The notes beneath the pieces are model-generated. The model was not told where the DNA came from and did not search any database. It saw nothing but the letters and a program-made list of their open reading frames with translations. 32,015 bases of DNA, taken from assembly GCA_017458965.1 (NCBI GenBank), contig JAFSZJ010000015.1:1-32015 (forward strand), read 5' to 3'. This DNA comes from Kiritimatiellia bacterium. Lineage in GTDB: Bacteria > Verrucomicrobiota > Kiritimatiellia > RFP12 > JAAYLN01. A program made the position numbers and the translations under genes. This document shows positions 4,066-30,917 of the stretch, piece after piece. Positions within the stretch are counted from its first letter, which is position 1; the number at the start of each line of letters is the position of its first letter.

Positions 4066-4584
4066 CTACTTTTTGCCCTGGCCCAGGATGGCGTCTGACA
4101 GCATCGCGCCGTTAAGCGGCTTGAGGAGGATATCGTCGAATCCCATTTCGGCGGCCTTGCCTCTCAGCTTCACGTCCGCCGTGACGGCGATGACGCGCAA
4201 CGAGGAGAGAGTGGGGTTGGAGCGTATTGCCTTGAGCAGATCTTCGCCGTTGAAGTTGGGCATCCAGATGTCCGTGAGGACAAGGTCGAATGGCTTGGCA
4301 TCGGGTGCCTGGAGGATGTCGAGCGCGATGCGTCCGTCCGCCGCCGTCACGATGTCGAAATCGCCGACATGCCTGAGAAGCGATGCGAGGACGGCCAGAT
4401 TGATGCTGGAGTCATCGGCGATCAGTATTCGGCGGTGGCTGCGGCCGCCAGCAACCTGCCCGACTTCCGGCATCTCCGTCTGCGCATCGTCCGCGACGAC
4501 CTGCTCGGCGGCGTTCGGCACGTCCGCCACCTTCACGTCCGGCAGGATTACGGAGAAGGTCGAGGATGTCGTTGACGAGGCCAA
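4066..4584 (-). pseudogene. Receiver domain remnant of a hybrid histidine kinase
   Basis: This frame carries a complete response-regulator receiver domain: the acidic pair in ILIADDSS, the phosphoacceptor Asp in LVLTDIWMPNFNG, the Thr in AVTAD, and the Lys in LLKPLNG. Before it lies a linker, and before the linker the segment STFSVILPDV, which matches the last beta strand of a HATPase_c domain (usually preceded by Gly-rich ATP-lid sequence). The ORF's only upstream start-like codon is a TTG at 4584, and the region overlaps the permease-kinase frame in another phase. The simplest reading is that this is the C-terminus of the same hybrid kinase, thrown out of frame by an internal deletion at about 4556-4563. 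If translated alone it would be a stand-alone CheY-like protein, but no convincing start is visible. Confidence 0.75.
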
Positions 4585-6472: not shown

Positions 6473-6531
6473 AGTAGAACCACGACCCAGAATGTTGTTT
6501 CATGTAGCACTTCCGCAGCCATCGAAAGCGG

Positions 6532-6537
6532 TATCAT
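6532..6537 (+). promoter_or_regulatory. Possible -10 element of the GH20 gene
   Basis: TATCAT ends 7 nt before the ATG at 6545, a spacing shared with several other genes here and compatible with a leaderless transcript. No good -35 hexamer is seen. The 72-bp divergent gap must also hold the promoter for the permease-kinase gene. Confidence 0.3.
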
Positions 6538-6544
6538 TGAACCC

Positions 6545-8083
6545 ATGACCGACATATCCCCTACCCCATCGCAGACCGTTTACGGCGGATCGGCGTCGAC
6601 TGAGCCGAAGTTCGCCTGGCGCGGCCACATGCTGGATGTGAGCCGCCATTTCTTCACGGTCGAGGACATCATGCGGACGCTCGACCTCATGCACGAGTTC
6701 GGCCTCAACGTCTTCCACTGGCACTTGACGGACGGCAGCGGCTGGAGGCTCCAGATCGACCGATATCCCAAGCTGACCACTGTCGGCGCCGTCCGCAAGG
6801 CCAGCACGAAACGCACGACCACGATGGGCCTCGACGTCGTCGACGGCGACTACGGTCCGTTCTTCTACACGAAGGACCAGGTCCGTGAAATCGTCCGCCA
6901 TGCGTCCGGACTTGGCATCCGCGTGATACCGGAGATCGAGATCCCCGGCCACTCCGGCGCGGCGATCGGCGCCTACCCCGAACTCGGCTGCACCGGGCGG
7001 TGGAACTGCGGCGAATACTGCCTAGGCAAGGAATCGACCTTCGAGTTCCTCAGGAACGTCCTGGACGAGGTGATCGAGCTCTTCCCCGACGAGGTGGTCC
7101 ACATCGGAGGCGACGAGTGCGCGGGAGTCCACTGGAAGGACTGCCACGACTGCCAGGCCCGCATCCGCGAGCTCGGGCTCAAGGACACCCACGACCTTCA
7201 GGGCTGGGCGACGAAGCGTTTCGCCGACTATCTCGAGAGCAAGGGCCGCCGGCTCATGGGCTGGGACGAACTCGCTACCTGGGACGACCTTCCGAGGAGC
7301 GTCATCGTCCAGAGCTACCGCGGCGCATCCTACGGCGTCGCCGCCGCGAAGAAGGGCTTCGACGTGGTGATGAGCCCCGACACTTTCTGCTACCTGGACT
7401 ATGTCCAGGGTCTCGCGGACGACCCCGAGGAGTACCAGCCCTTCGGCGTCCTACTCGATGTCGCCAGGATCGCGCGTTTCGACCCTTGCGCGGACGTCCC
7501 GGAGGATTGCCGCCATCACATCCTTGGCGGACAGGGCAACCTCTGGACGGAGCTCGTCCCCGACCGCAGGGCCGCCGAGTGGCGCACCTGGCCGCGCCTG
7601 GCGGCGATCGCGGACGTCCTATGGAACGGCCCGGCGAATGACTTGCCCGCGTTCATGCGCCGCATGCAGGCGATCCGCGACGACCTCGTCGGGCGCGGCG
7701 TGAACGCCGCCCCGCTCGGCCCGCTCTTCAAGCCCGTTCCCGACCTCCTGCCCGGCGCCCGATACGAGTCGGTCAAGGCCGACAACGGCAAGCGCCTTGA
7801 TTTCGCCAAGATGCTCGACAACCCCCTCGACTTCAGCGTCCTGCGCTTCGACCCAGATGACAAGGACGATTCGTTCCGACACGTCTTCGCGACACGGGAT
7901 CCCTCCATGGCCAAGGGGACCTACCGTCTCGACATGAACTTCGACCGCATCTCGATGTCCGCGCCAGACGACGAGGGATTCGAACGCGGCCTCGCGCAGA
8001 TGCGCGCCCTCGCCCGCCGCAAGCGCGGCGGCGTGATGGAGTTCACTGGCACCGTCATCGTGGGCGGTCCGGCTTACGCATGA
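6545..8083 (+). CDS. Beta-N-acetylhexosaminidase, GH20, with C-terminal GH20b-like domain
   Basis: This glycoside hydrolase removes terminal beta-linked N-acetylglucosamine or N-acetylgalactosamine using substrate-assisted catalysis. The GH20 barrel begins almost at the N-terminus (FAWRGHMLDVSRHFF, about residues 23-37) and continues with FHWHLTDGSGWRLQIDRYPKL and VIPEIEIPGHSGAA. The catalytic Asp-Glu pair is in HIGGDECAG near residues 187-192. The usual N-terminal GH20b domain is absent. Instead the last 60 residues contain GTYRLDMNFDRISMSA, then DEGFERGLAQMRAL, and end TVIVGGPAYA, which reads like a GH20b domain moved to the C-terminus. I chose the ATG at 6545 because the upstream in-frame extension (from 6455) is not conserved and overlaps the divergent gene. 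No signal peptide is visible. The stop overlaps the GH28 start (ATGA), implying coupled translation. Confidence 0.9.
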   Translation: MTDISPTPSQTVYGGSASTEPKFAWRGHMLDVSRHFFTVEDIMRTLDLMHEFGLNVFHWHLTDGSGWRLQIDRYPKLTTVGAVRKASTKRTTTMGLDVVDGDYGPFFYTKDQVREIVRHASGLGIRVIPEIEIPGHSGAAIGAYPELGCTGRWNCGEYCLGKESTFEFLRNVLDEVIELFPDEVVHIGGDECAGVHWKDCHDCQARIRELGLKDTHDLQGWATKRFADYLESKGRRLMGWDELATWDDLPRSVIVQSYRGASYGVAAAKKGFDVVMSPDTFCYLDYVQGLADDPEEYQPFGVLLDVARIARFDPCADVPEDCRHHILGGQGNLWTELVPDRRAAEWRTWPRLAAIADVLWNGPANDLPAFMRRMQAIRDDLVGRGVNAAPLGPLFKPVPDLLPGARYESVKADNGKRLDFAKMLDNPLDFSVLRFDPDDKDDSFRHVFATRDPSMAKGTYRLDMNFDRISMSAPDDEGFERGLAQMRALARRKRGGVMEFTGTVIVGGPAYA

Positions 8084-9501
8084 GGATGAATATGGACGCG
8101 GATCAGAAAATCGAAGAGCTCGCGGACGGATCGTCGGTCAGCCACGGGATACGCACGTCCGTCTTCGACCCGCGCGATTTCGGCGCGAAGGGCGACGGGC
8201 TTGCCAAGGACACCGCCGCTATCCAGCGCGCGATCGACGAATGCTCGCGCTTCGGCGGCGGCAGGGTGGTGCTATCGCGGGGCAGGTTCCTCTCCGGGAT
8301 GGTCTCTCTCAAGGACGGCGTGGACCTCCACATCGACGCAAGCGCCGTCCTGCTCGGTTCCGAGGACGACGCCGACTTCCCGACCAACGCGCCCAGCGCC
8401 ATCCTCGACCCGTGCAAGACATGCCGCGGCCGTACCACCGCCCTCGTCGTCGCCGACGGCTGCCGCAATGTCGCTCTAACCGGACGCGGACGGATCGACT
8501 GCAACGGCATGGCGTATGTGCAGCTATCCAACAGCCGCGGCTACGGCTACGAGAACGAGGGCAACGCAGGCGACGACGCGAAGCCGCTCGGGGACGACGA
8601 GTGGGTGAACTGGAGATACCGTCGCATCCCGGGCAAGCTCGGTCCACCGCGGATGGTCCTGTTCGCCGGTTGCCAGGACGTGCTGGTGGAGGACGTGTCG
8701 CTTGTCAATCCCGCCGCCGGCTGGGGCTACTGGGTGACCGGCTGCGAACGCGTCGTCTTCGAGCGCGCCAAGGTGCTGGCCAACCCCGACATGCCGAACA
8801 ACGATGGCATCCACCTCAATGCGTCAACGGACATCTCGATCTCCAACTGCCGCATCGTCGCCGGCGACGACGCGATCGTCGTCAGGTGCAACAACCGTCC
8901 GTTCCGCGACGGACTCAACCGCGTATGCGAGCGGGTGACGGTGTCGAACTGCCAGCTGACGAGCCACGCGAACGCCATCCGCATCGGCTGGCTCAACGAC
9001 GGCGTGGTGAGGAACTGCGTATTCACCAACCTCGCCGTGACCGACTCGGCCTGCGGCATCGGCATCGATCTGCCGCCGTTCGAGAAGGGCATGGACGACT
9101 ACGGACGCGAGGCGTCGCTCTACGAGAACCTGGTCTTCTCGACCATCGTCATGGACCGCGTCTACTCCTCGCCCGTGCGCTTCGACATCACCGGCGAGGA
9201 AGCCACGCGCATGGAGGCGATCCGCGCGATCACCTTCTCCGACATCCGCGCCCGCGCCTACAAGTTCCCTGATCTGCGCGCCGGCGGCGGACGCGCCGTG
9301 GAGGATGTCGTCTTCCGCGGTTGCGCGTTCACCCGCTGCGCCGACGGCGCCTTCCCGGGCGACTGGCGGCAGAAGGGCGCCGCGTACTGGTGGAACGAGG
9401 GACGCGAGGACTTCCCCGGGCTGAAAGGCGTGAGGTACGAGGGTTGCACCTTCACCGATGAGGCGGCGAAACGCGCGCCTTCCACGGACTCCTTCGAGTA
9501 G
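8080..9501 (+). CDS. Polygalacturonase-like right-handed beta-helix hydrolase, GH28
   Basis: This protein has the pectinase-type N-terminus FDPRDFGAKGDG with DTAAIQRAIDEC, followed by beta-helix coils. It carries the GH28 core: NNDGIH near residue 240, equivalent to NTDG, and AGDDAIVV near 264, which supplies the catalytic Asp pair. The third motif, canonically GHGxS, appears as SHANAIRIG, so the family histidine is displaced or replaced. This is common in GH28 branches acting on rhamnogalacturonan or xylogalacturonan rather than plain homogalacturonan. No signal peptide is evident. Translation can start at ATG 8080, overlapping the GH20 stop, or at the in-frame ATGs at 8086 and 8092. It forms an operon with GH20. 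The exact substrate is not determined. Confidence 0.85.
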   Translation: MRMNMDADQKIEELADGSSVSHGIRTSVFDPRDFGAKGDGLAKDTAAIQRAIDECSRFGGGRVVLSRGRFLSGMVSLKDGVDLHIDASAVLLGSEDDADFPTNAPSAILDPCKTCRGRTTALVVADGCRNVALTGRGRIDCNGMAYVQLSNSRGYGYENEGNAGDDAKPLGDDEWVNWRYRRIPGKLGPPRMVLFAGCQDVLVEDVSLVNPAAGWGYWVTGCERVVFERAKVLANPDMPNNDGIHLNASTDISISNCRIVAGDDAIVVRCNNRPFRDGLNRVCERVTVSNCQLTSHANAIRIGWLNDGVVRNCVFTNLAVTDSACGIGIDLPPFEKGMDDYGREASLYENLVFSTIVMDRVYSSPVRFDITGEEATRMEAIRAITFSDIRARAYKFPDLRAGGGRAVEDVVFRGCAFTRCADGAFPGDWRQKGAAYWWNEGREDFPGLKGVRYEGCTFTDEAAKRAPSTDSFE

Positions 9502-9609
9502 CACGGGTTGTTGTCGCAGCTCCCAGAATTGCGATGATCAGATACAGGCCTGAAGGTCGGGACTTTTGAATTCCGGCCGCCCCAACGACCCAATGGCGGA
9601 ATGGCTTGG

Positions 9610-9618
9610 TGGTAAAAT
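9610..9618 (+). promoter_or_regulatory. Extended -10 promoter candidate TGGTAAAAT
   Basis: A TGn extended -10 with TAAAAT lies 7 nt before the ATG at 9626, so transcription would begin at or next to that start codon. The 115-bp gap upstream (9502-9616) shows no gene and no clear terminator. The promoter now drives only a truncated gene. Confidence 0.4.
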
Positions 9619-9883
9619 GTCCGACATGGAGAAATACTTGAACAACGCGAATCTAAAAGTCGAGGCACTGGCGGACAACATCGTGCGCGTCCGCATGGCG
9701 CGCGACGGAAGGTGGCCGGAGTCGGCCATGAACCGCTATGGGGTCATCGCCGATAGGCCGGTACGCGCGGGGCGCGACTCGCTGGTTTTCAGCAAGGTCG
9801 CGCCTGGCTACCACTCGAAGGTCGCAGGCGTGGCGGTCAAAATCATTGGCATGCCGCCCAGCACCGTCGTCTTCATGCGTTGA
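9617..9883 (+). pseudogene. Truncated N-terminus, probably of a GH31-like glycosidase
   Basis: This frame of about 88 residues (ATG at 9617 or 9626) contains LKVEALADNIVRVRMARDGRWPES followed by beta-rich sequence and stops soon after. The pattern matches the mutarotase-like N-terminal domain found in front of GH31 alpha-glucosidase/xylosidase barrels. No catalytic barrel follows in any frame, because the GH78 gene begins 51 bp later. I therefore interpret it as the stump of a deleted hydrolase that still carries its own promoter motif. It could instead be a small unrelated protein; the family match is from pattern recognition only. Confidence 0.45.
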
Positions 9884-9933
9884 CGTATCTGCCCGGCAGA
9901 AATCAGAACACCCCCCTTACGTAATCCTTCGCA

Positions 9934-12402
9934 ATGGAGACGGAAATCCCTATGGCAGTTCGCCGCATCTTCATAGACCGCGATCCGGGGGGCGGATCCC
10001 CGGATGACGACGGACGCCGCCGCGTTTGGCTTGCGAAATGGATCCGCGCGGCGGGCGACAATGGCCTTTGCCCCGGCGTGTGGGCCTTCCGCCGGCGCTT
10101 CAAACTCGAGTCGTCCGCGACCCTGCGTCTCCATGTCACCGCCGACCAGCGCTACGACCTGTGGATCGACGGCGCATGGGCTGGTTTTGGTAGCGAGCGC
10201 GGCCTTCACAACTCCTGGTTCTACGAGAGCTACGAGGTGGACCTCGCGGCGGGATGCCACGTTATCGTGGCGCGCGTGTGGTGGACTGGCGAGGCGTCCC
10301 CGATGACGCACACCGGCCACGCGACCGCCGACCGCCCCGGCTTCCTGCTCCATGCCGAGGAGCCATTCGACAGGACGATAGATACCGCGCCGGAGACATG
10401 GGAGGCACTACCGCTGGCCGGATATTCGCTTCTCAACCCATGGGACCAGTACGAGGGCGTCTATGTGGAGGTCGGAGCCCGCACGAAACTTGATGGCCGG
10501 TCACACCCCTGGGGCTTCGAGGCCGGCGAGTGCGACGGCTGGACGCCGGCGGTCGCGAACGGGCTTCCGCTTCGCTTCAGGGCGACGCCGACATTCGTCG
10601 GCAAATGGCATTGCCTGACGCCCGGCACACTGCCGCCGATGCGGCAGTCGCGCGGCCCTTGCGGCGAAGTGCGCTTTGCGGTCGCGTTGCCCTTGGACAA
10701 GACCGGTGCACCTGGCGGCAGTCCGGCGGATTTCGGGCGCGACCCCGTATGCGTCGCGGCGTCCGACAGGGCGCTTGCGCAAGCCTGGGGCGCCATGCTT
10801 GCGGGCAATGGCGGGCCGGTAATCATCCCGGCCCGTTCGGCGCAGCGCATTATTGTTGACTTCGGCACCTATGTCTGCGCATTCCCGCGCGTCGTCCTGT
10901 CCGGTGGCGGCGGGGCCGACATCTCGGTGCGCTGGGCCGAGGCGCTTCTGAAGGATCCGGCCGGCATAGCCAAAGGCCGGCGCGACGACATCGACGGCAA
11001 GTATTTCAGGGGGCTCGCGGATATTTTCGTGGCGGATGGCGGGGCGCATCGCCAGTTTGAATCGCTCTGGTTCGAGGCAGGCAGGTTCGCCGAAATCGTG
11101 GTGCGGACGGCCGACGAGCCGCTGGCGGTCGAGTCGCTGTCGCTGCGGGAGACGCACTACCCGATCGACTGGGCGTATCGCTTTGAAACGGACGACTCGC
11201 GCTGGGCGGCGGCGCTGCCGATCATGGGGCGCACGCTTGAGATGTGCTCCCATGAGAGCTATTTCGACTGCCCCTACTATGAGCAGCTCATGTACGGCGG
11301 GGACACGCGCCTTGAGGTGCTGGCGACATACGCGACCACGCGCGACGACCGTCTTCCGCGCAAGGCGATGGTTGTTTTTGATCGAACGCGATCCGAAGCC
11401 GGCTTTACCCTTTCCCGCCAGTCCCCTGACGAGCCGCTTGTCATCCCCACCTACGCGCTCCACTTCGTCCAGATGGTCGCCGATTACGCGCTATGGCGCG
11501 GCGACAGGGATTTCGTCCGCAAACGGCTAAGCGGCGTACGCGCCGTTCTCCAGGCCTGGGGCGAGCGCATTGGCGTGGACGGCCTTGTGCGCAACCCGCT
11601 CGGCTGGAACTTCATCGACTGGAACCCGACATGGGAGGGGGGCGTCCAGCCGAATGGAGGAATCGGATGCGTGAGCCCGGTGAACAACCTGCACTTCGCA
11701 TGGACGCTGAAAATGGCGGCGGACGTGGAGGACTGGGTGGGCGATCCCGAATTCTCCGCCTGGGACCGGCGCCAGGCGGAGCGCATAGGCCGTGCGGTCG
11801 TGGCGGCATACTGGGACGAAGATCGGCATCTTTTCGCGGAGGACGAGTCGCACACCCGCTTCATCGAGCATACGCAGTGCATGGCCGCCCTTGGCGGGTT
11901 TGTGCCACAGGGTGCCGACGAGGCGTTTGGCGAGTCGCTTGCGACGGCGCCAGACCTGGACCGGGCATCGGTCTATTACCGCTCATACCTGATCGACGCC
12001 TTTCGCGCGTTGCGCCGCCCGCTCGACATGCACCGATGCTTCGACCTCTGGTTCACGCTTAAGCCGCTTGGTCTGCGTACGGTCCTTGAACAGCCGGAAC
12101 CTTCCCGCTCCGACTGCCATGCCTGGGGCTCGCACCCGATGTACCACGCCATAGCGTCCGTGGCTGGGATCCGGCCAGCGGCGCCAGGTTTCGCGTCCGT
12201 GCTGATTGAGCCGCTTCCGGGTCCGCTTAGGCGCCTGCGCTGCGAAGTCCCGCATCCGTCTGGCGGTGCCGTATCGCTTGACATCGCGCTTGAGAACGGT
12301 CATTGGATCGGCGCGGCCGAAACTCCGAAGGGCACCCCGGCGACGCTCATCCTGAACGGCAAGACGCATACCTGGCCCGGCGGCCCAATCAGCATTGCCT
12401 AG
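9934..12402 (+). CDS. Alpha-L-rhamnosidase, GH78
   Basis: This large glycosidase is expected to release alpha-linked L-rhamnose from pectic or other rhamnose-containing glycans by an inverting mechanism. The N-terminal half is beta-rich, starting with a WLAKWIRA-type segment followed by a carbohydrate-binding-like fold. The (alpha/alpha)6 barrel carries the family signature ESYFDCPYYEQLMYGGDTRLE near residues 440-460 and the acidic stretch around FIDWNPTWEGG. Its end holds SDCHAWGSHPMYH near residue 728, and a C-terminal beta domain completes it. Length, 822 residues, fits GH78. There is no signal peptide, so it may act inside the cell on imported oligosaccharides. Starts at 9934 and 9952 are both possible, and neither has a good ribosome-binding site. 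The next gene follows after 16 bp. Confidence 0.87.
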   Translation: METEIPMAVRRIFIDRDPGGGSPDDDGRRRVWLAKWIRAAGDNGLCPGVWAFRRRFKLESSATLRLHVTADQRYDLWIDGAWAGFGSERGLHNSWFYESYEVDLAAGCHVIVARVWWTGEASPMTHTGHATADRPGFLLHAEEPFDRTIDTAPETWEALPLAGYSLLNPWDQYEGVYVEVGARTKLDGRSHPWGFEAGECDGWTPAVANGLPLRFRATPTFVGKWHCLTPGTLPPMRQSRGPCGEVRFAVALPLDKTGAPGGSPADFGRDPVCVAASDRALAQAWGAMLAGNGGPVIIPARSAQRIIVDFGTYVCAFPRVVLSGGGGADISVRWAEALLKDPAGIAKGRRDDIDGKYFRGLADIFVADGGAHRQFESLWFEAGRFAEIVVRTADEPLAVESLSLRETHYPIDWAYRFETDDSRWAAALPIMGRTLEMCSHESYFDCPYYEQLMYGGDTRLEVLATYATTRDDRLPRKAMVVFDRTRSEAGFTLSRQSPDEPLVIPTYALHFVQMVADYALWRGDRDFVRKRLSGVRAVLQAWGERIGVDGLVRNPLGWNFIDWNPTWEGGVQPNGGIGCVSPVNNLHFAWTLKMAADVEDWVGDPEFSAWDRRQAERIGRAVVAAYWDEDRHLFAEDESHTRFIEHTQCMAALGGFVPQGADEAFGESLATAPDLDRASVYYRSYLIDAFRALRRPLDMHRCFDLWFTLKPLGLRTVLEQPEPSRSDCHAWGSHPMYHAIASVAGIRPAAPGFASVLIEPLPGPLRRLRCEVPHPSGGAVSLDIALENGHWIGAAETPKGTPATLILNGKTHTWPGGPISIA

Positions 12403-12405
12403 AGC

Positions 12406-12410
12406 GGAGG
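12406..12410 (+). promoter_or_regulatory. Ribosome-binding site fixing the first GH5 start
   Basis: GGAGG lies 8 nt before the ATG at 12419 and just after the GH78 stop. It favours 12419 over the in-frame TTG at 12395. Confidence 0.75.
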
Positions 12411-12418
12411 ACCCGACC

Positions 12419-13462
12419 ATGAACGCAACGATTTCGCGGGAACCGTCCTTGGTTGACGACTGGAGACCGGCGGCGCGATGGCGGGGCTTCAACCTTCTTG
12501 GGATGTTTCGCTGCCCAACAACGGGTCTGGCCCCAGACCCAAGGGTTGACGGCCATTTCCCCGAGTGGGAGTTCCAGGCGCTTGCCGACTGGGGTTTCAA
12601 CTTCGCTCGCCTTCCCATCGACTACCGCATCCTCGTCAGGGGCGACAGCTGGACCAACATCGACGAAGGCCAGATGGCGAAGGTCGACGAGGCGATTGAG
12701 TTCGGGCGCCGGTACGGCATCCATGTGCAGATCGCGCTCCACCGCATTCCCGGATACTGCATCCTCGACGAGACCGAGGCGTTCCCGCTCGGCACGAGTC
12801 CCGTGGCGCAGGAGGCCGCGTGCGAGATGTGGGCCGCGTTCGCAAAGCGCTGGAAGGGTGTTCCGAACGAAGTCCTTTCCTTCAATCTCTTCAACGAGCC
12901 CTACCGACACACGGCGGGCACGAACTACCTCCCGCTCTGCAAGAAGCTCATCAAGGCCATCAGGGATGTCGATCCCGGCCGCTTCATCATGGTGGACGGC
13001 AACGAATGCGCGGGAGAACCGGTGCCGGAACTCTACGATGTTCCGTCCGTCGGGCAGGCATTCCGCGGCTACACCCCGCATGCGGTGACGCATTACGGGG
13101 CTGAATTCATCGGCGGAATCCCGAAGACTGCGCCGACATGGCCTCTTGCGCCGGGATATGCCAGCGGATGGCTTATGGAGACGCCGGAGGCAACGGTCGC
13201 GAAGTACCAAAGCGCGCTCGACGCGGGCGAATTCTGCATGGTCGGGGAGTTCGGATGCCGTGCAAGCACGCCCCATGCCGTCGCCCTCGCCTGGATGGAG
13301 CATTGCCTCCGGCTATGGCAGTCAAAGAACCTTGGCTGGGCGCTCTGGAACCTGAAGGGCGTCTTCGGCGTACTCGATTCGGGACGTGGCGACGTCGCCT
13401 ACGAGGACTTCAATGGACACCAGCTCGATCGCGAAATGCTTGAGCTACTTAGGTCGTTCTAG
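12419..13462 (+). CDS. Glycoside hydrolase family 5 (cellulase-type) enzyme, copy 1
   Basis: This 347-residue TIM-barrel protein belongs to GH5 of clan GH-A, which includes retaining endo-glucanases and mannanases. It shows the early RGFNLLGMF segment, WGFNFARLPIDYR, and the barrel strand with ALHRIPGYC. The acid/base Glu is in NLFNEPY near residue 158. The nucleophile Glu is in MVGEFGC near 276, followed by the WALWNL substrate platform. No signal peptide or binding module is present. It is clearly paralogous to the GH5 at 24427, with the same FNLLGMF, GHFPE and WGFNFARLP blocks. Position between GH78 and GH38 suggests a role on the same heteroglycan. Substrate is not predictable from the motifs. 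Confidence 0.87.
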   Translation: MNATISREPSLVDDWRPAARWRGFNLLGMFRCPTTGLAPDPRVDGHFPEWEFQALADWGFNFARLPIDYRILVRGDSWTNIDEGQMAKVDEAIEFGRRYGIHVQIALHRIPGYCILDETEAFPLGTSPVAQEAACEMWAAFAKRWKGVPNEVLSFNLFNEPYRHTAGTNYLPLCKKLIKAIRDVDPGRFIMVDGNECAGEPVPELYDVPSVGQAFRGYTPHAVTHYGAEFIGGIPKTAPTWPLAPGYASGWLMETPEATVAKYQSALDAGEFCMVGEFGCRASTPHAVALAWMEHCLRLWQSKNLGWALWNLKGVFGVLDSGRGDVAYEDFNGHQLDREMLELLRSF

Positions 13463-13465
13463 CGA

Positions 13466-14836
13466 ATGAAAGCTATGACTGCATATTCGTTGGTGACGCG
13501 GGACGGACGTAGGCTCGTATCGCGAGAAGAGGATGGCAGGACGGTATTTGAACTGGTCGCCGTCGATGCGCTTCCGGCTGGTCTGCCACCCGTCCGCCAA
13601 TGGACGATCTACGGCGTCAAGTCCGCCCATTCCGACCTTGGCCTCCATCGCTCCAACTACATCCAGCGCAAGGGCTCCGTGCGGCGGCTCGAACTCGCGA
13701 AGGAGCTTTTCGACGCGGACCGGCGCCCGGACTCCGACCCTGCGGCATTCCGATATGTGCAGGAAGGCTGGTGGGGATGGTTCAACTACCTGGCGGAGCG
13801 CGGCGAGGATAAGACGCGCGCCGATTTCGCGGACCTTCTTCGGCGCGGACGGCTTGACATCGGTCTTTCGCTCTGCGGCGGCACGACTCATATCTTCGGC
13901 TACGAGGAACTGTCGCGTTCGCTCTATCCGCTCCGCGAATTGCGGTCGAAGTGGGGCGTCGAAGGGCATACCTCGCAGCTTGTCGACAATCCAGGGGTAT
14001 CGTCCGCCGTCATCGACCCGTATGTCGATGCTGGCATCGACAACCTAGTGTTCTGGCCGAACGGGTGGGTGCTTGAGCAACTTTGCTGCGGCGGGTCGCC
14101 GAACCGCATGAAGATCCGCTTCGCCCCGGGCACGGACCATCCGCCCGTCTTCTGGTGGGAGGCGCCAAGCGGCAACCGGTTGCTTGTATGGTCCGGGTCC
14201 CACTACATCGGAGGCGGGCAATTCGGTCTCTCGACGGCCTTCATCGACAAGCCGTCCCATCCCCAGCCCGATAAGGCCGAGGTCCCGCCCGCCGACTGGG
14301 AACCCGACATGGAGCGGATGGAACGCGCGACTGCGGCGACGCTGGCGAGCCTTGAGCAGACGGTTCCGTATGATGTATGGCTCTTCCCCGACTACCATGA
14401 CGACGAGATCCCGTCCACGCGCCTCGCGGACGCCTTCGCGAAGTGGAACGAGAAGTGGGCGACGCCCGTCTTCCGCACGGTCGGCCGCCTCGACGACCCC
14501 TTCGACCGCCTGCGCGAAAGGTTCGCGGACAAGATCCCCGTCGTGCGCGGCGACATCTCCTGCGCCTGGGACCGGACGCTTCCGGCCGTGGCGGAACTGC
14601 TGGCGGACAAGCTCGCGGCGGACCGGCGGCTGCCACTTGCTGAGGCGCGCGCCACCGTCGCCGCCGTGAAGGCCGGCGCCGCCTTCCCGCACGACGACAT
14701 CGCGCACGGCTACGAGGCGCTTCTCCTGAATGACGACCACTCCTACGGATTCAGCGGCTATTCGGGACGGCGCTGCTACGACACCTGGGCGCAGCACCGT
14801 GACTGGATCGAGACGGCCGCCCGCATGGCGAAGTAA
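13466..14836 (+). pseudogene. GH38-like alpha-mannosidase, N-terminal part of a split gene
   Basis: The 456 residues correspond to the catalytic half of a GH38-type retaining alpha-mannosidase. KSAHSDLGLH contributes the metal-binding His-Asp. The barrel continues through VFWPNGW and WLFPDYHDDEIP to the three-helix region, ending in YDTWAQHRDWIETAARMAK. In complete family members this helix region leads into beta domains and then the LENxxYRV segment. Here a stop occurs immediately and foreign DNA with its own promoter follows. The missing C-terminal domains reappear on the same strand at 16154 after an inserted ATPase gene. The piece may still be translated, but the fold would be incomplete. 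The start is ATG 13466 (or 13475), 4 bp after the first GH5 stop. Confidence 0.8.
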
Positions 14837-14842
14837 TGGTTC

Positions 14843-14902
14843 ACCAAAACGGAGTATTTTCCTTTATGGTGGTAACCAAAACGGAGAGCTGTCCATTTTG
14901 GT
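14843..14902. repeat. Triplicated 11-mer, possible operator of the inserted ATPase
   Basis: ACCAAAACGGA occurs twice in direct orientation at 14843-14853 and 14875-14885, exactly 32 bp apart. It occurs once inverted, with one mismatch, as TCCATTTTGGT at 14892-14902. The last two face each other around GAGCTG. The inverted copy ends one base before the -35 hexamer of the ATPase promoter, a position suited to a regulator. It could equally be the end structure of the mobile segment. Confidence 0.6.
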
Positions 14903-14903
14903 G

Positions 14904-14932
14904 TTGACGCTGCAATGCGTATCCGATAATAT
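14904..14932 (+). promoter_or_regulatory. Sigma-70-like promoter of ATPase 1
   Basis: TTGACG (14904-14909) and TAATAT (14927-14932) are separated by 17 bp. The -10 ends 7 nt before the ATG at 14940, with no ribosome-binding site in between, pointing to a leaderless or nearly leaderless transcript. A and T content is higher here than in surrounding genes. Confidence 0.7.
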
Positions 14933-14939
14933 CAGTAGC

Positions 14940-16148
14940 ATGAACTCATCATACCAAAGCCGCGTTTACGATGCGATCATCAGGGATCATCTGGCTGAAA
15001 ACAGACAGATGGTTTTTCTTTCCGGCCCTCGTCAATGCGGGAAGACCACACTTGCGAGGAGCATTTCGGAAATCTACCTGAACTGGGATGACGCCGATAT
15101 CCGCAAGACTGTTCTGTCCGGGCAGAGGGACACAGCTGCCCGCATCGGACTGGATGCACTGTCCGGGAAAAAGCGAGTTGTGGTTTTCGACGAGCTTCAC
15201 AAGTACCCTCGTTGGAAAAACTTTCTTAAAGGTTTCTTTGATCTTTACGGAGACGAAACCAAAATCATCGCCACGGGTTCGGCAAAGATGAATATCTACA
15301 AGCGCGGCGGTGACAGCCTGATGGGGCGCTACTTCCCATACAGAATGCATCCGCTGTCCGTGGCGGAACTTGTTGACGCATCCCTGCCTCCAGAATCGCT
15401 GATTCGCGCCCCGCGTCCAGTGCCAGATGACGGGTGGAAGGCGCTTTGCCGCTTTGGGGGCTTCCCTGAGCCCTTCACGCGCCGTAGTCCAAGATTTTCG
15501 CGCAGATGGACCGACATGCGACTTGAACAGCTCATGCATGAAGACGTAAGGACTGTGGCCCAGGTCCACGAGGTTGAGCAAATCAGGCTCCTTGCCGAAA
15601 TTCTCATGCGCAGATCGGGAGAGCAATTGTCCTGGGTTTCGCTGGCGACAGACTTGTCTGCCGACCCTAAATCGGCCAAGAAGTGGACCGAAATCCTCGA
15701 GTACCTGTACTTTGGATTTGAAATCAAGCCATGGAAGCGCAACATCGCCGATGCACTGCGGAAAACCCCGAAATGGTACCTTAGAGATTGGTCTGGAATT
15801 GATGACATCGGGAAGCGCAACGAGACCATGACGGCATGCCACCTTTTAAAGGCGGTCGAGGCCTGGACGGATTTGGGATACGGGCGATTTGATTTATGGT
15901 ATATACGCGACAAGCAGAAACGTGAAGTTGATTTCCTTGTCACCCGCGACGGAAATCCGTGGTTTTTGGCGGAGGTCAAGACCTCCGCGGCAACCCCGTC
16001 GCGGGCACTTGCCCACTTTCAATCTGCAACAGGATCCGATCATGCATTTCAGGTTGTTTTTGAAATGCCGTACGTCGGCGCCGACTGCTTCTCTCGGAAA
16101 ACCCCTGTTGCCGTTCCAGCCAGGACATTCTTCTCACAACTTGTCTAA
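14940..16148 (+). CDS. AAA (AAA_14)/DUF4143 ATPase inserted in the GH38 gene
   Basis: This 402-residue protein has Walker A GPRQCGKTT at residues 29-37, Walker B VVVFDELHK, and a sensor-like IIATGSAKM. These match the ATPase core followed by DUF4143. The C-terminus contains REVDFLVTRDG then FLAEVKTS, a D-x(n)-ExK pattern like the PD-(D/E)xK nuclease fold; whether it cuts DNA is unknown. Proteins of this class occur in many divergent copies in gut bacteria, and their role is unclear. The ATG at 14940 is chosen because the promoter lies directly before it and the longer frame runs back into GH38. The gene sits exactly between the two halves of GH38, has its own promoter and repeat cluster, and is less GC-rich than the hydrolases, all signs of horizontal entry. 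No transposase or integrase accompanies it. Confidence 0.88.
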   Translation: MNSSYQSRVYDAIIRDHLAENRQMVFLSGPRQCGKTTLARSISEIYLNWDDADIRKTVLSGQRDTAARIGLDALSGKKRVVVFDELHKYPRWKNFLKGFFDLYGDETKIIATGSAKMNIYKRGGDSLMGRYFPYRMHPLSVAELVDASLPPESLIRAPRPVPDDGWKALCRFGGFPEPFTRRSPRFSRRWTDMRLEQLMHEDVRTVAQVHEVEQIRLLAEILMRRSGEQLSWVSLATDLSADPKSAKKWTEILEYLYFGFEIKPWKRNIADALRKTPKWYLRDWSGIDDIGKRNETMTACHLLKAVEAWTDLGYGRFDLWYIRDKQKREVDFLVTRDGNPWFLAEVKTSAATPSRALAHFQSATGSDHAFQVVFEMPYVGADCFSRKTPVAVPARTFFSQLV

Positions 16149-23275: not shown

Positions 23276-24430
23276 ATGTTCATCAATCGCGAGATCAACG
23301 AATTCTTCGCCAGACGAATGTTTGGCGGCAAGGTACTCGTTGTCTATGGACCTCGACAGTCCGGCAAGACGACGGCCATCGAGCATTATCTTGACATCTC
23401 CGGTCTTGCCAGCGAGACGGTGACGTTCAACGGCGACGAAACCGCAGACCGCCAGTTGCTGGCCGATATTTCGCCCGAACGGCTGAAATTGTTGATCGGC
23501 GGCAAGAAAGTGGTGTTCATCGACGAGGCTCAAAAGGTACCAGGCATAGGATTGGTTCTGAAAAGGCTCCATGACAAGGTGAAAGATATCCAGGCAATCG
23601 CTTCGGGTTCCTCAAGTGAGGCCTTGGCGGAGCAGACAGAGGAGCCGCTCACTGGCCGGAAATTCGAATACACGCTTCTTCCGCCTTCCTTTGCTGAACT
23701 TTCAGCCATCTCCTCACCCGTCGAGGAGATGCGCGAACGGGAGCGTAGGCTTATGTACGGGTCGTATCCGGATGTCGTCACGCATCCTGGGGATGAGGTC
23801 GCCAGGATTCGGGAAATCGGTAAGGGCTACCTCTACAAGGACATCCTCATGCACGATGAAATCAAACGCCCTGAATTGCTGGACAAGTTGTTGCGCGCGC
23901 TGGCATTCCAGATCGGTCAGGAGGTGTCCTTCAACGAAATCGCGCAGTTGGTCGGATGCGACGTCAAGACAGCCGCGAAATATATCGACATCCTTGAAAA
24001 GGCGTTCGTCGTGTTCCGGTTGGGAAGCTATTCGCGGAATTTGCGCAACGAGTTGAAGAAGAGCCGCAAGGTCTTCTTTTGCGACTGCGGAATCAGGAAC
24101 TACGTACTTGGTGACTGGCGTCCACTAGCCCAGCGAGATCCGACAGACGCTGGCCGACTTTGGGAGAATTATTTCATTTCGGAACGGCGCAAGCGGATTC
24201 TCGTCGACACGCCCGAGACCCGAATTTTTTTCTGGCGGACGGCACAGCGTCAGGAAGTGGATTTGGTGGAGGAGACGGCGGACGGTCTGAAGGCGTACGA
24301 GTTGAAGTGGAATCCATTAAAGGCGCGGGATGCTATCAGCGCGACTTTCAGGAGCGCCTACCCGAATGCGCTTTGTTTCGGAGTCTCCCCGGAAAACTGC
24401 GCCGAATTCCTGTGCGGATGGAAGCGATGA
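23276..24430 (+). CDS. AAA (AAA_14)/DUF4143 ATPase, copy 2
   Basis: The 384-residue protein has Walker A GPRQSGKTT near residues 25-33, Walker B VVFIDEAQK, and a SGSSS sensor region. It also has the DUF4143 linker (YLYKDILMHDEI) and a winged-helix-like stretch (VSFNEIAQLVGCDVKTAAKYIDIL). A C-terminal QEVDLVEETADG then YELKW resembles a PD-(D/E)xK nuclease core. It shares layout but limited sequence with ATPase 1, so the two are not recent duplicates. It has its own strong promoter. Its TGA stop overlaps the ATG of the downstream GH5 (ATGA), so the GH5 is probably now translated from the ATPase message. The cellular function of this class is not established. Confidence 0.88.
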   Translation: MFINREINEFFARRMFGGKVLVVYGPRQSGKTTAIEHYLDISGLASETVTFNGDETADRQLLADISPERLKLLIGGKKVVFIDEAQKVPGIGLVLKRLHDKVKDIQAIASGSSSEALAEQTEEPLTGRKFEYTLLPPSFAELSAISSPVEEMRERERRLMYGSYPDVVTHPGDEVARIREIGKGYLYKDILMHDEIKRPELLDKLLRALAFQIGQEVSFNEIAQLVGCDVKTAAKYIDILEKAFVVFRLGSYSRNLRNELKKSRKVFFCDCGIRNYVLGDWRPLAQRDPTDAGRLWENYFISERRKRILVDTPETRIFFWRTAQRQEVDLVEETADGLKAYELKWNPLKARDAISATFRSAYPNALCFGVSPENCAEFLCGWKR

Positions 24431-25449: not shown

Positions 25450-26583
25450 ATGACACTCGTTGAATTCGTCCCGCCCAAGCCGCATCCCTTGTGGAAGCTC
25501 TGCCTCCAGATGGGGATAACGGATGTCATCATCAAGGTGAACCCCACGCTTACGGGTCTGCCCGACCCGTGGCGGCATGAGACTCTCGCCCGCATCGTGG
25601 GAGGCCTGAAGATCGCCGGCCTGAAGGTCGTCGGACTCGAGGGCGACCCCTTCGACATGAGCCCGATCAAGGAGTATGGGGAACGGGGAACGGGAAACGG
25701 CGAACGGGAGGAGGCGCTGGCGCATTACCGTGAGCTGCTGGAGTCGATGGGGCGGCTTGGGATAAGGCTCCTCTGCTACAACTTCATGGCCGGTCAAGGT
25801 TGGTCGCGGACGGGCGTCCGCGAAGGGCGCGGTGGCGCCAAGGCGACATACTTCTCGATTGAGGAATGTCTTGGCCGCAAGGAACACGAAGATCACAAAG
25901 GCCTTGTGCCCTCTGCGTCCTTTGCGGCAAAAAACAATCCTGTCCAGGGACGACTTCTCATATCCCACGAGCAGGTCTGGGCGAACTACGAGCACTTCAT
26001 CAAGTCCGTGATGCCGACGGCGGAGAGATGCGGCGTGCGCATGGCGCTCCACCCTGACGACCCGTGCCTGCCGTCGCTTGGCGGCTACGCCCGCATCTTC
26101 GGCAGCGTCGAGGCCTACGACCGCGCCTACGCGCTCCATCCATCGCCCTCCAACGCCGTCACCTTCTGCCAGGCGAATTTCAAGCTTATGCTGGGGCATC
26201 AGGGATCAGGGGTCAGGGATCAGGGGTCAGGGATTGGGGAACAACTTTCAACTTTCAACTCTCAACTTTCAACTCTCGAAAATGTCGCCAGACATTTTCG
26301 AGACCGGATCGCCTTCATCCATGTCCGTGATGTGGAAGGGACGGTCGAGGACTTCACCGAGCTTTTCCACGACCAGGGAACGACCGACCAGTTCTCGCTC
26401 ATGCGGACATACCGCGAATTGGGGCTGGATGTCCCCGTGCGCGGCGACCATGTGCCGGAGATGGAGGGAGACCGTCTTCTGGCTGCGGACTGCATCCCCG
26501 GCTATTTCACGCTGGGCCGTCTCTTCGCCAACGGCTACCTCAAGGCGCTCCTCGAGGGCACCGAAGAGAAACCGGGAAACTGA
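25450..26583 (+). CDS. uxuA: UxuA-type mannonate dehydratase carrying repeat insertions
   Basis: This TIM-barrel protein resembles mannonate dehydratase, which converts D-mannonate to 2-keto-3-deoxygluconate in glucuronate breakdown. Likely metal ligands are all present: His in ALHPDDPCLP near residue 201, Cys in TFCQANF near 240, His in FIHVRDVEGT near 290, and Asp in PVRGDHVPEM near 331. The end GYFTLGRLFANGYLKALLE also matches. The 377 residues include low-complexity insertions that are translations of DNA repeats: YGERGTGNGERE (heptamers), GRKEHEDHKGLVPSASFAAK (palindromic element) and HQGSGVRDQGSGIGEQLSTF plus following (two heptamer arrays). Without them it would be about 315 residues. 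All insertions keep the frame and seem to lie between core elements. Related xylose-isomerase-like barrels are an alternative. Confidence 0.78.
   Translation: MTLVEFVPPKPHPLWKLCLQMGITDVIIKVNPTLTGLPDPWRHETLARIVGGLKIAGLKVVGLEGDPFDMSPIKEYGERGTGNGEREEALAHYRELLESMGRLGIRLLCYNFMAGQGWSRTGVREGRGGAKATYFSIEECLGRKEHEDHKGLVPSASFAAKNNPVQGRLLISHEQVWANYEHFIKSVMPTAERCGVRMALHPDDPCLPSLGGYARIFGSVEAYDRAYALHPSPSNAVTFCQANFKLMLGHQGSGVRDQGSGIGEQLSTFNSQLSTLENVARHFRDRIAFIHVRDVEGTVEDFTELFHDQGTTDQFSLMRTYRELGLDVPVRGDHVPEMEGDRLLAADCIPGYFTLGRLFANGYLKALLEGTEEKPGN
25678..25705. repeat. Heptamer array (GGGGAAC) inside uxuA
   Basis: Four 7-bp units GGGGAAC, GGGGAAC, GGGAAAC, GGCGAAC lie inside coding sequence and encode a Gly/Glu/Arg-rich stretch between two core elements of the barrel. 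Confidence 0.85.
25875..25927. repeat. Imperfect palindromic repeat element inside uxuA
   Basis: The segment starting CCGCAAGGAACACGAAG and ending CTGCGTCCTTTGCGG folds on itself. The outer arms CCGCAA/TTGCGG and inner AAAGGC/GCCTT pair, with scattered mismatches between. It resembles the dispersed CACGAAG/CTTTGCGG-type repeats I remember from environmental bacterial genomes. It is translated in frame. Confidence 0.65.
26200..26234. repeat. Heptamer array (CAGGGRT) inside uxuA
   Basis: Five alternating units CAGGGAT and CAGGGGT run without interruption, and a degenerate TGGGGAA leads to the next array 7 bp later. They encode a Gly/Ser/Asp-rich loop. Confidence 0.9.
26242..26276. repeat. Heptamer array (CAACTYT) inside uxuA
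   Basis: Five units CAACTTT or CAACTCT follow the previous array. They encode a Ser/Thr/Gln/Leu-rich stretch before the conserved RHFRDRIAFIHVRD block resumes. Confidence 0.9.
26274..26303. repeat. Perfect 13-bp inverted repeat at the end of the heptamer arrays
   Basis: TCTCGAAAATGTC and GACATTTTCGAGA are exact reverse complements separated by GCCA. The left arm shares its first bases with the last heptamer; the right arm lies in conserved coding sequence. Confidence 0.75.
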
Positions 26584-28297: not shown

Positions 28298-28326
28298 ACG
28301 CGGTGAACGGAGCAGAAAGTCCAAAA

Positions 28327-29292
28327 ATGACCATGCATACATCTTCGGTAAACAACAGGGCGATTGAACGCTGGAAGGCCGACAGCGCTGCGTCGGTCGA
28401 TTTCTACAATTCCTGGTTCCTAAACTTCGCACCTCCGTCCTTCCGAGCGGCGCGAGGCGAAGCTGCCAAAAAAGTAGAACGCGCGTTCAAACTCACAGAG
28501 AACGGACGTCGTCTCGATGCGGCAACGCTGCTCGCACATCCGCAGATTCTCGCTGTGGCGCGCCAGCTGACGTGTCCCCCTCTTGCCCGAGACCGTCTTT
28601 CCGGCCTTTCCGGCGTGTCTTCGGGATTCATCAAGCGGTGTGAAGACTCGGATGGTTCAAAACTCCCTGCCAACGACCGGCCTCGAATGCAGGCTGTATT
28701 GAATGTGATTTCCAAGATGCTTGACAGAGACATACTAACGTGGCTTTCGGATGATGACGGCAACCCATCGGCCCAACGACGAAACCGTGCGGCCCTTGTC
28801 ATAGCAGACAGACTGTGCGGCGCCCTGGCCGATCCGATTCTGCGCAATGCCCAGGAGAAACGCCAGCTGGCGGCTCTCACCAAGTGGCTTGTCGCCCATG
28901 GCTATCGGGGAGTTTCCCCGAAGACTCATGCCGATCTCGATCCGGGTCAGTTCGCAATACACCTTAACATGCCGTGCCGGGTTTCTGAAAAATCGCCAGA
29001 AACAGTTAACGTGTCGGTGGACATGGCGATTCTGCCCCATTGCGCCGCAAAAGGGGACGTCCCAATCCTATTTGAGGCGAAATCGGCAGGTGACTTTGTC
29101 AACGTGAACAAACGGCGGAAGGAGGAGGCCAAGAAGATGGATCAGTTGCGTGGGCAATATGGCGAGTCCGTCCGTTATATACTGTTCCTTTGCGGCTATT
29201 TCGATGCCACGTATCTCGGATACGAGGCGTCGGAGGGGATAGACTGGATTTGGGAGCATCGGATCGACGACATGGAGGCGCTGGGGCTGTGA
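28327..29292 (+). CDS. XamI-like type II restriction endonuclease
   Basis: This protein of about 321 residues matches the XamI family of type II restriction enzymes. The diagnostic C-terminal region is present: SVDMAILPHC, PILFEAKSAGDF, NKRRKEEAKKMDQLR, YILFLCGYFDATYLGYEAS and EGIDWIWEHRIDDM. The Asp in SVD and the Glu-x-Lys in FEAKS form the PD-(D/E)xK catalytic core that cuts DNA with magnesium. XamI itself recognises GTCGAC, but specificity here is inferred only from family. The start is ATG 28327 or the in-frame GTG at 28303, which lies 5 bp after the previous stop. Its stop overlaps the methyltransferase GTG start. Lower GC than the hydrolases suggests transfer. Confidence 0.85.
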   Translation: MTMHTSSVNNRAIERWKADSAASVDFYNSWFLNFAPPSFRAARGEAAKKVERAFKLTENGRRLDAATLLAHPQILAVARQLTCPPLARDRLSGLSGVSSGFIKRCEDSDGSKLPANDRPRMQAVLNVISKMLDRDILTWLSDDDGNPSAQRRNRAALVIADRLCGALADPILRNAQEKRQLAALTKWLVAHGYRGVSPKTHADLDPGQFAIHLNMPCRVSEKSPETVNVSVDMAILPHCAAKGDVPILFEAKSAGDFVNVNKRRKEEAKKMDQLRGQYGESVRYILFLCGYFDATYLGYEASEGIDWIWEHRIDDMEALGL

Positions 29293-30917
29293 CCATCACT
29301 GCTGTTGAATCAATACGGCTGGAAGAGCAGTCGCGCATTGATGCGTCAAAAACTATCAATGCACGTCGGAGGCTTGGACAGTTCGCAACGCCACCAGATC
29401 TGGCGAGGGACATCGCAAGGGAAACAGTTGCCATGCTGGATGGGAACGCAACTGTCGAAATGCTGGAACCTTCCGCCGGAACTGGAGCGTTCCTGTCAGC
29501 GTTTTTTTCAGAGGCACCAGGCCGAGTTCGGCGCATACTTGCCGTGGAGCTAGACCTGGCGTTTCATGATGCCCAGAAGCGGATTTGGCAAGATTTCCCA
29601 GTGGATAGCCGCATGGCGGACTTCACAGCGCTTAAGCCAGACCGCTTCGTTGACCTCGTCGTCGCAAATCCGCCATACGTCCGTCACCACAATATAAGCG
29701 CGGAGGTTAAACAACGACTTCAGGCCGACGTAATGGCGGAAACGGGACTTCGGTTGTCTGGGCTCTCCAGTCTCTACTGTTACTTCATGTTGCTTTCCGT
29801 GAAGTGGATGAAGCCGGACGCCATAGGCGCATGGCTTGTCCCTACCGAATGGATGTCCGTCAACTACGGGAGCGCCATTCGCTCATTCCTATCGGAACGC
29901 GTCCGGCTTCTTCGGGTTCACCGATTCGATTCGGAAGACGTTCGTTTTTCAGATGCGCTAGTTTCGTCATGCCTAGTTTGGTTTCGCAATGCCCCACCAG
30001 CCGATTCGGTGACGTTCACATCAGGCGGTGACATTACGCATCCAAGCCGCACGGAGGAAGTGTCCGTCGCGGAGTTGAGGCAAGCTAGGAAATGGCCGCC
30101 CACAGAATCTGCCAATCCCCCCTCCGCGCCGCGACTGCGCGATTTCTTCACCATTCGGCGCGGCATTGCGACCGGTGACAATCCATTCTTCATATTGCCA
30201 CAGGAAAAGGTCCAGGAGCGGGGCATCCCGTCATGCTTCCTAAAACCGATTCTTCCAAGTCCACGCCACCTGAAAACCGACAGAATATTGTCCGATGAGG
30301 CCGGAATTCCAGTAAATGCAAACCGGCAGTTCCTGCTAGACTGCACGGGAATTGACAGAACCGACCTCCCAGAAAGTGTCATGGCATATCTCACGGAAGG
30401 GGAAGCGACGACCGCGTCAAAGAAATTATGCGCCGGACGAACCAGATGGTATGACCAAGAGCAACGTTCGCCAGCGCCAATCCTCTGTTCATACATGGGA
30501 CGCGGCAAAGATGACGGAACGCCAGTCCGTTTCATCCTTAACGAATCCGCCGCCATTGCCACGAATTCATTCCTTATGCTCTATCCGAAAGGCTCACTGC
30601 GGCGCGTTTTTGCGGAATCTCCCGAAGCCCGCGAAGCCGCATGGCGTTGCCTACTCTCAATACCCGCTGGCGAATTCCGCAGGGCAGGGCGATGCTATGG
30701 CGGAGGTCTTCAAAAAATGGAGCCGCGGGAACTAGGAGACCTTCTCTGTCAAAAGCTCGCGGATTGGCTTTCGGAGCGCATCGGTTTCCAGTATAGGCAG
30801 GAGGACTCCGGTCAACTCCTTTTTGCAATGGAGCCTGAAAGCCCTGATGAAATTCCATCTTTAACTAAACGGAAAAGGGCAAGGAAGTTCCAGACTAGAA
30901 GGGATGCCAATTCATGA
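29289..30917 (+). CDS. N6-adenine DNA methyltransferase of the XamI-like system
   Basis: The protein protects host DNA by methylating adenine in the recognition sequence of the partner nuclease. Motif X (RRLGQFATPPDLARD near residue 29) precedes motif I (LEPSAGTGAFLSAFF near 59) and motif IV NPPY in VVANPPYVRHH near 128. This is the gamma order of TaqI-like enzymes, with a C-terminal target-recognition domain. The GTG at 29289 is chosen because it overlaps the nuclease stop as GTGA and lies just before conserved sequence, giving 542 residues. A longer frame from 29190 would overlap the nuclease heavily. The TGA stop overlaps ATG 30914 of the next gene. No controller (C) protein gene is present. 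Specificity is not readable from the sequence. Confidence 0.88.
   Translation: MTITAVESIRLEEQSRIDASKTINARRRLGQFATPPDLARDIARETVAMLDGNATVEMLEPSAGTGAFLSAFFSEAPGRVRRILAVELDLAFHDAQKRIWQDFPVDSRMADFTALKPDRFVDLVVANPPYVRHHNISAEVKQRLQADVMAETGLRLSGLSSLYCYFMLLSVKWMKPDAIGAWLVPTEWMSVNYGSAIRSFLSERVRLLRVHRFDSEDVRFSDALVSSCLVWFRNAPPADSVTFTSGGDITHPSRTEEVSVAELRQARKWPPTESANPPSAPRLRDFFTIRRGIATGDNPFFILPQEKVQERGIPSCFLKPILPSPRHLKTDRILSDEAGIPVNANRQFLLDCTGIDRTDLPESVMAYLTEGEATTASKKLCAGRTRWYDQEQRSPAPILCSYMGRGKDDGTPVRFILNESAAIATNSFLMLYPKGSLRRVFAESPEAREAAWRCLLSIPAGEFRRAGRCYGGGLQKMEPRELGDLLCQKLADWLSERIGFQYRQEDSGQLLFAMEPESPDEIPSLTKRKRARKFQTRRDANS

What the first reader, a model, noticed from the sequence alone, without database searches (positions are those of the whole stretch)
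25678..26303. Mannonate dehydratase gene as a landing site for four repeats, with switching potential
Three heptamer arrays and one palindromic element are all translated within one metabolic gene, and metal ligands and core motifs remain intact. Adding or losing one unit (7 bp) would shift the frame, so unit slippage could turn uronate breakdown on and off. Selection for frame is evident because all insertions are in frame.
Basis: partly seen in the sequence, partly recalled or inferred. Interest (0 to 1): 0.6.

Follow-up and report, generated by a model that had tools for sequence, protein, structure and literature searches.

The report
Enzyme loops repeatedly filled by repeats
In gut bacteria of the Kiritimatiellae, a sugar-acid enzyme carries short DNA repeats, translated in frame, at three loops, and related species carry different repeats at the same loops while the enzyme stays under selection, so this looks like tolerated repeat insertion that reshapes protein loops and not an on/off switch.

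Summary
The repeats are real. The gene at 25450-26583 (+, 377 aa, UxuA/mannonate-dehydratase fold) holds a GGGGAAC array (25678-25708), a 55-bp hairpin (25874-25928), a TCAGGGR array (26195-26238) and a CAACTYT array (26240-26277), all translated. The perfect palindrome 26274-26303 is not an insert: it is native coding DNA in which near-invariant HFGKR became HFRDR.

In 39 aligned sequences (window plus 38 homologues) the same three loops hold different repeats in different species: other 7-mers, 8-mers, 9-mers, hairpins. Recognised elements occur in 25 of 39, and sister species swap them. No copy is out of frame, and the core is under purifying selection. In neuO, a proven heptamer switch, 65.6% of genomes are OFF (PMC13001214). 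Five other conserved proteins in two sampled genomes also carry in-frame arrays. In one, GltD, a loop holds elements in 12 of 30 orthologues and plain sequence in 18, none out of frame.

Verdict: landing-site and frame-selection claims are supported; uronate phase switching is not. Best reading: genome-wide 7-9 bp repeats and hairpins enter genes, and selection keeps only in-frame, stop-free ones in permissive loops, as with Rickettsia palindromic elements. How they arrive and exchange is unknown; within-population variation was untestable.

The parts
25450..26583 (+). UxuA/ManD-family gene, 377 aa, that carries all the repeats
   Evidence: Pfam UxuA E 9.9e-51; nearest folds 3ban, 1tz9, 4eac, all mannonate dehydratases; below the TIGR00695 cut-off
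25678..25708 (+). Loop S1 insert: GGGGAAC heptamer array, translated GERGTGNGERE
   Evidence: TRF; same loop holds other elements or none in homologues
25874..25928 (+). Loop S2 insert: imperfect hairpin built of degenerate 9-mers, translated within GRKEHEDHKGLVPSASFAA
   Evidence: Fold -23.7 kcal/mol; 3' arm recurs in the genome; loop S2 variable in homologues; pLDDT < 50 at residues 148-166
26195..26238 (+). Loop S3 insert, part 1: TCAGGGR heptamer array
   Evidence: TRF and period scan; the only such array found in the genome
26240..26277 (+). Loop S3 insert, part 2: CAACTYT heptamer array
   Evidence: TRF; the same unit family occurs at many other places in the genome
26274..26303 (+). Perfect 13-bp inverted repeat with 4-nt loop in native coding sequence (not an insert); right arm changes HFGKR to HFRDR
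   Evidence: Inverted repeat; aligned homologues

Best explanation
These are tolerated, in-frame, protein-coding insertions of genome-wide repeats. The genome, like many relatives in its order, is full of degenerate 7-bp (also 8- and 9-bp) arrays and small hairpins. They arise in or are copied into genes as well as intergenic DNA, and purifying selection removes those that shift the frame, add a stop or break the fold. Survivors collect in a few permissive surface loops, which then act as landing pads where elements are gained, lost, lengthened in frame-keeping steps and swapped between sister species. The mannonate-dehydratase-like enzyme has three such loops and is presumed to be always made. 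Shown here: the inserts, their loop positions, the turnover, the frame conservation, the purifying selection on the core and the recurrence in other genes. Inferred: that the enzyme is active, that the inserts are close to neutral, and that new copies arrive by copying or recombination as well as by slippage.
For: 39 aligned sequences (window plus 38 homologues) carry different elements at the same three loops, with short plain loops in some (S1 11 aa, S2 19 aa, S3 13 aa). Recognised elements are in 25 of 39. All homologues are read in one frame with no stop. Supported sister groups swap elements: L064/L070 (array against GC palindrome at S1), L074/L079/L081 (array, TIR element and inverted heptamers in different combinations), L037/L078 (array against a one-unit scar at S2). 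L079 has the same element at all three loops. pN/pS of the core is 0.05-0.19 in 11 pairs. Inserts fall in coil with low confidence while the core is above 90 pLDDT, and the fold matches ManD. In-frame arrays also lie inside or between conserved domains of a CopA-like ATPase, an Opp-type ABC ATPase, LacZ, GltD and a PFL-like enzyme. GltD's loop holds elements in 12 of 30 orthologues and plain sequence in 18, all in one frame.
Against: No insertion event has been watched, and no empty-site/filled-site pair of the same species is available. Some element families (GGGGAAY at S1) recur in many species and could be inherited. Neutrality is not tested: loops S1 and S2 lie on the side of the barrel where active-site loops sit, so they could affect activity. 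The finding that in-gene arrays are mostly stop-free on the sense strand (19 of 21) is partly circular, because ORF calling demands it.
Confidence: 0.85

Rival explanations
1. Phase-variable switch: heptamer slippage turns the enzyme on and off, as in neuO.
For: Units of 7 bp are not a multiple of 3, so one unit gained or lost would shift the frame. Heptamer slippage does switch neuO (PMC13001214).
Against: 0 of 25 element-bearing homologues are out of frame, against 65.6% OFF in neuO; with that OFF rate and independence, 0 of 25 has probability about 3e-12. Arrays are short and degenerate and lie in mid-gene. Three separate arrays in one gene, and similar arrays in gltD and copA, make no sense as one switch. 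Homologues have plain loops.
Confidence: 0.04
2. Adaptive loop diversification: the repeats are selected because the varied loop peptides tune substrate range, partner binding or stability.
For: The same three loops vary in most homologues. By their place after barrel strands S1 and S2 could face the active site.
Against: Loop peptides are what the repeat DNA dictates when read in all frames (for example GERGTGN from GGGGAAC/T), and unrelated elements replace one another in sister species. The same elements lie in unrelated proteins and between genes.
Confidence: 0.08
3. Artefact: short-read assembly or binning created the arrays in a metagenome-assembled genome.
For: All genomes here are draft MAGs, and G000 is 63% complete.
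Against: Arrays of at most 80 bp are shorter than typical reads; independent assemblies from several studies show the same loops with elements; frames are always kept. A gene at the other end of the contig is closest to the assigned family.
Confidence: 0.03

Closest known systems
Rickettsia palindromic elements (RPEs; Ogata 2000, 2002, as summarised in PMC10969869)
   Same: Dispersed repeats inserted in frame in unrelated protein-coding genes, with the host protein apparently kept.
   Different: RPEs are palindromes of about 150 bp in defined families. Here most inserts are arrays of 7-9 bp units, direct or inverted, and unlike elements replace one another at the same loop in different species.
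Heptamer repeats of Nostoc and Xanthomonas (GGGGA(C/T)T, GGGAATC; PMC4692102) and TAACTGA repeats of Beggiatoaceae (PMC4679880)
   Same: Degenerate 7-bp tandem units scattered over the genome; the G-rich unit GGGGAAY is very like theirs; mostly intergenic.
   Different: Those reports stress intergenic, regulatory or quadruplex roles and rarity on the coding strand inside genes. Here arrays lie inside conserved enzymes, in frame, at recurrent loops.
neuO heptamer phase variation (PMC13001214)
   Same: Heptamer array inside a reading frame; only suitable unit numbers keep the frame.
   Different: neuO has one array at the 5' end with 3-53 units and most genomes OFF. Here there are several short degenerate mid-gene arrays and none is OFF.

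Membership tests
Phase-variable contingency locus (neuO type) | Repeat unit not a multiple of 3 inside the reading frame | tested here: met
   Three 7-bp arrays in the ORF
Phase-variable contingency locus (neuO type) | ON and OFF alleles both found among related genomes | tested here: not met
   0 of 25 element-bearing homologues out of frame; neuO has 65.6% OFF
Phase-variable contingency locus (neuO type) | Long, pure array near the 5' end | tested here: not met
   About 4-6 degenerate units at codons 77-86 and 249-276 of 377
Phase-variable contingency locus (neuO type) | Unit number varies within a population | not testable with these tools
   Only one genome per species is held; no reads
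Protein-coding palindromic elements (RPE type) | Dispersed repeat inserted in frame in unrelated conserved genes | tested here: met
   uxuA-like gene, CopA, Opp ATPase, LacZ, GltD, PFL-like
Protein-coding palindromic elements (RPE type) | Palindromic element of about 100-150 bp belonging to an RPE family | tested here: not met
   Most inserts are tandem arrays; the window's hairpin is 55 bp. Sequence homology to RPE families was not searched
Heptamer simple sequence repeats (Nostoc/Xanthomonas type) | Degenerate 7-bp units dispersed over the genome, more outside than inside genes | tested here: met
   25 period-7 arrays in 211 kb, most intergenic although coding fraction is 0.88
D-mannonate dehydratase (UxuA/ManD) | UxuA domain and fold | tested here: met
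   Pfam 173 bits against cut-off 23.7; best folds 3ban, 1tz9, 4eac
D-mannonate dehydratase (UxuA/ManD) | Passes the curated uxuA equivalog model TIGR00695 | tested here: not met
   102 bits against 199.55
D-mannonate dehydratase (UxuA/ManD) | Metal-site residues His, Cys, His, Asp conserved (roles recalled from work on the S. suis enzyme) | tested here: met
   H201, C240, H291, D333 invariant in 44 homologues and aligned to 3ban

The most novel reading that the evidence does not exclude
In this order of gut Kiritimatiellae, simple-repeat arrays and hairpins are a general, continuing source of new protein sequence: many conserved enzymes have landing-pad loops at which unrelated 7-9 bp repeat elements are gained, lost and exchanged in frame between sister species, possibly by recombination with repeats elsewhere in the genome.
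Probability: 0.6. Interest if true: 0.65.

Novelty: new variant of a known kind. Interest (0 to 1): 0.52.

Why it matters
It extends the idea of protein-coding selfish repeats from one group of intracellular bacteria to common, little-studied gut bacteria, and from defined palindromes to simple-repeat arrays. Because one loop can be compared with and without inserts across dozens of species, the system makes it directly testable how repeats enter proteins, how fast they turn over and how much a working enzyme tolerates. It also warns that out-of-frame-capable arrays inside genes do not by themselves mean phase variation.

Tried and rejected
Phase switching: rejected on the absence of OFF copies in 25 element-bearing homologues and on the neuO yardstick. 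An apparent broken copy in G153 (stops inside) proved to be an intact gene cut by the contig edge, with an in-frame 8-mer insert. The palindrome 26274-26303 was considered as an inserted element and rejected because homologues align through it without a gap. Sense-strand stop-freedom of in-gene arrays was counted (19 of 21 sense, 7 of 21 antisense) but is partly circular and is not relied on. No Rfam family matched the window. Mis-binning of the contig was considered; the ABC-F gene at its other end is closest to the assigned family. The original RPE papers were not held, so RPEs are described from a review.

Full report
What is there. The window is contig C60 of a 1.75-Mb, 63%-complete draft genome; its relatives are mostly rumen and gut MAGs labelled Kiritimatiellae, Lentisphaerae or Verrucomicrobia. 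The gene at 25450-26583 (+) encodes 377 aa. It matches Pfam UxuA and its model (mean pLDDT 86) is closest to the mannonate dehydratases 3ban, 1tz9 and 4eac. It falls below the curated uxuA equivalog cut-off, so its exact substrate is not established. The residues known from ManD as metal ligands are invariant among 44 homologues (ligand roles from general knowledge).

The repeats. Loop S1 holds a GGGGAAC array (25678-25708), loop S2 a 55-bp imperfect hairpin (25874-25928), and loop S3 a TCAGGGR array followed by a CAACTYT array (26195-26238, 26240-26277). The perfect inverted repeat 26274-26303 is not an insert. All homologues align through it, and 37 of the 38 compared sequences read H-F/L-G there; only the window has HFRDR. 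The right arm therefore seems to have been changed to match the left arm, as expected from quasi-palindrome-templated mutation (inference).

Homologues. 38 homologues, most of them 54-76% identical, were aligned with the window. Everything outside S1-S3 aligns almost without gaps. Inside the loops, species differ in kind as well as in number of units: GGGGAAY arrays (window, L035, L036, L038, L063, L064, L074), GGAAAAG (L094), inverted heptamers around GAAGTCC (L037, L074, L076, L077, L081), 8-mers around CTCAACCC (L064, L070), 9-mers AATCCTGTT (L034, L036), a CACAAATGAC element at all three loops of L079, and several GC palindromes (L042, L067, L068). Homologues L043, L044, L098 and L100 have short plain loops (11, 19 and 13 aa), and L039, L040, L041 and L091 have plain loops without repeats. 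By pattern, 25 of 39 sequences carry at least one recognised element.

Turnover. On a tree of the core (many deep forks are unresolved) well-supported close relatives differ. L064 and L070 have a GGGGAAY array and a GC palindrome at S1; at S2 they share an octamer array that differs by 72 bp, nine units. L074, L079 and L081 carry different combinations of an array, the CACAAATGAC element and inverted heptamers at all three loops. L037 has the inverted heptamers at S2 where L078 keeps one unit as a scar. GGGGAAY arrays at S1 come mostly in lengths of 17 or 24 aa, a step of 21 bp, three units.

Frame and selection. Each homologue is read in one frame without a stop. L126 lacks residues 234-340 in frame and may be decayed or misassembled. 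pN/pS in the core is 0.05-0.19 for 11 pairs, so the genes are under purifying selection. In neuO, a heptamer array that does switch, 42 of 64 genomes are OFF (PMC13001214). None of 25 here is; with a 65.6% OFF rate and independence that has a probability of about 3e-12. The homologues are related, so this is a guide and not an exact test.

Not specific to this gene. In 211 kb sampled from this genome period 7 dominates (25 arrays, against 9 of period 8 and 5 of period 9); G045 is similar, while G024 and G048 have few. Most arrays are intergenic although 88% of the sample is coding. In-frame arrays also lie within or between conserved domains of a CopA-like ATPase, an Opp-type ABC ATPase, LacZ, GltD (all G000) and a PFL-like enzyme (G045). 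For GltD, 30 sequences of the order were compared at the loop between SLRF and GVE. The window's genome has about 61 extra residues made of GAAGGTC heptamers and TTCAACCC octamers. In all, 12 sequences have elements of several unlike kinds, 18 are plain, and none is out of frame. A core nitrogen-assimilation gene is an unlikely target for on/off switching.

History of this copy. The nearest homologues are in another family (f3) of the order; three of five genomes of its own family have no match and two have only distant ones. The ABC-F gene at the other end of the contig is closest to the own family (66-73% against 54-58% in f3). Horizontal gain or differential loss are both possible. TCAGGGR arrays occur in this genome only at this gene; they are found in own-family genomes G001, G003 and G004 and in none of five f3 genomes, which fits acquisition or conversion of that array in the present lineage (inference).

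Mechanism. The best-supported reading is tolerated in-frame insertion of genome-wide repeats, with selection removing frame-breaking ones, so that permissive loops become landing pads. Slippage can explain length steps, but replacement by unlike elements, and the same element at several loops of one gene, point to copying or recombination between repeats (inference; not shown). It works like Rickettsia palindromic elements (PMC10969869) with units like the heptamer repeats of Nostoc and Xanthomonas (PMC4692102), but meets the definition of neither in full. Searches of the paper library for Kiritimatiellae repeats found nothing on this; that library is incomplete.

Noticed in passing
26274-26303: Perfect 13-bp inverted repeat in native coding sequence, created where near-invariant HFGKR reads HFRDR; looks like quasi-palindrome-templated mutation beside a repeat array.
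   Followed up: partly
1-114: Contig begins with a 16-copy ACTCTCC/ACTTTCC heptamer array, apparently intergenic; assembly probably broke there.
   Followed up: no
4412-6472 (-): Amino-acid permease fused to a His-kinase A domain, a possible transporter-sensor.
   Followed up: no
28303-30917 (+): XamI-type restriction endonuclease next to an Eco57I-like methylase: a restriction-modification pair.
   Followed up: no
6455-13462 (+): GH20, GH28, alpha-L-rhamnosidase-like and GH5 genes in a row, a likely plant-polysaccharide (pectin) cluster.
   Followed up: no
14730-16148 and 23276-24430 (+): Two AAA_14/DUF4143 ATPase genes; the first has a 32-bp tandem duplication near its start (14843-14903).
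   Followed up: no
L126 3001-3921: Homologue that lacks residues 234-340, half the metal site, yet stays in one frame; decayed gene or misassembly.
   Followed up: partly
L191 484-2025 (-): GltD of the same genome with about 61 extra residues made of heptamers and octamers at a loop that is plain in 18 of 30 orthologues.
   Followed up: yes
L074, L076, L081, L037 and L064 at loop S2: Arrays of 7- and 8-mers occur as inverted pairs, so that an array and its reverse complement form one hairpin; origin unexplained.
   Followed up: no
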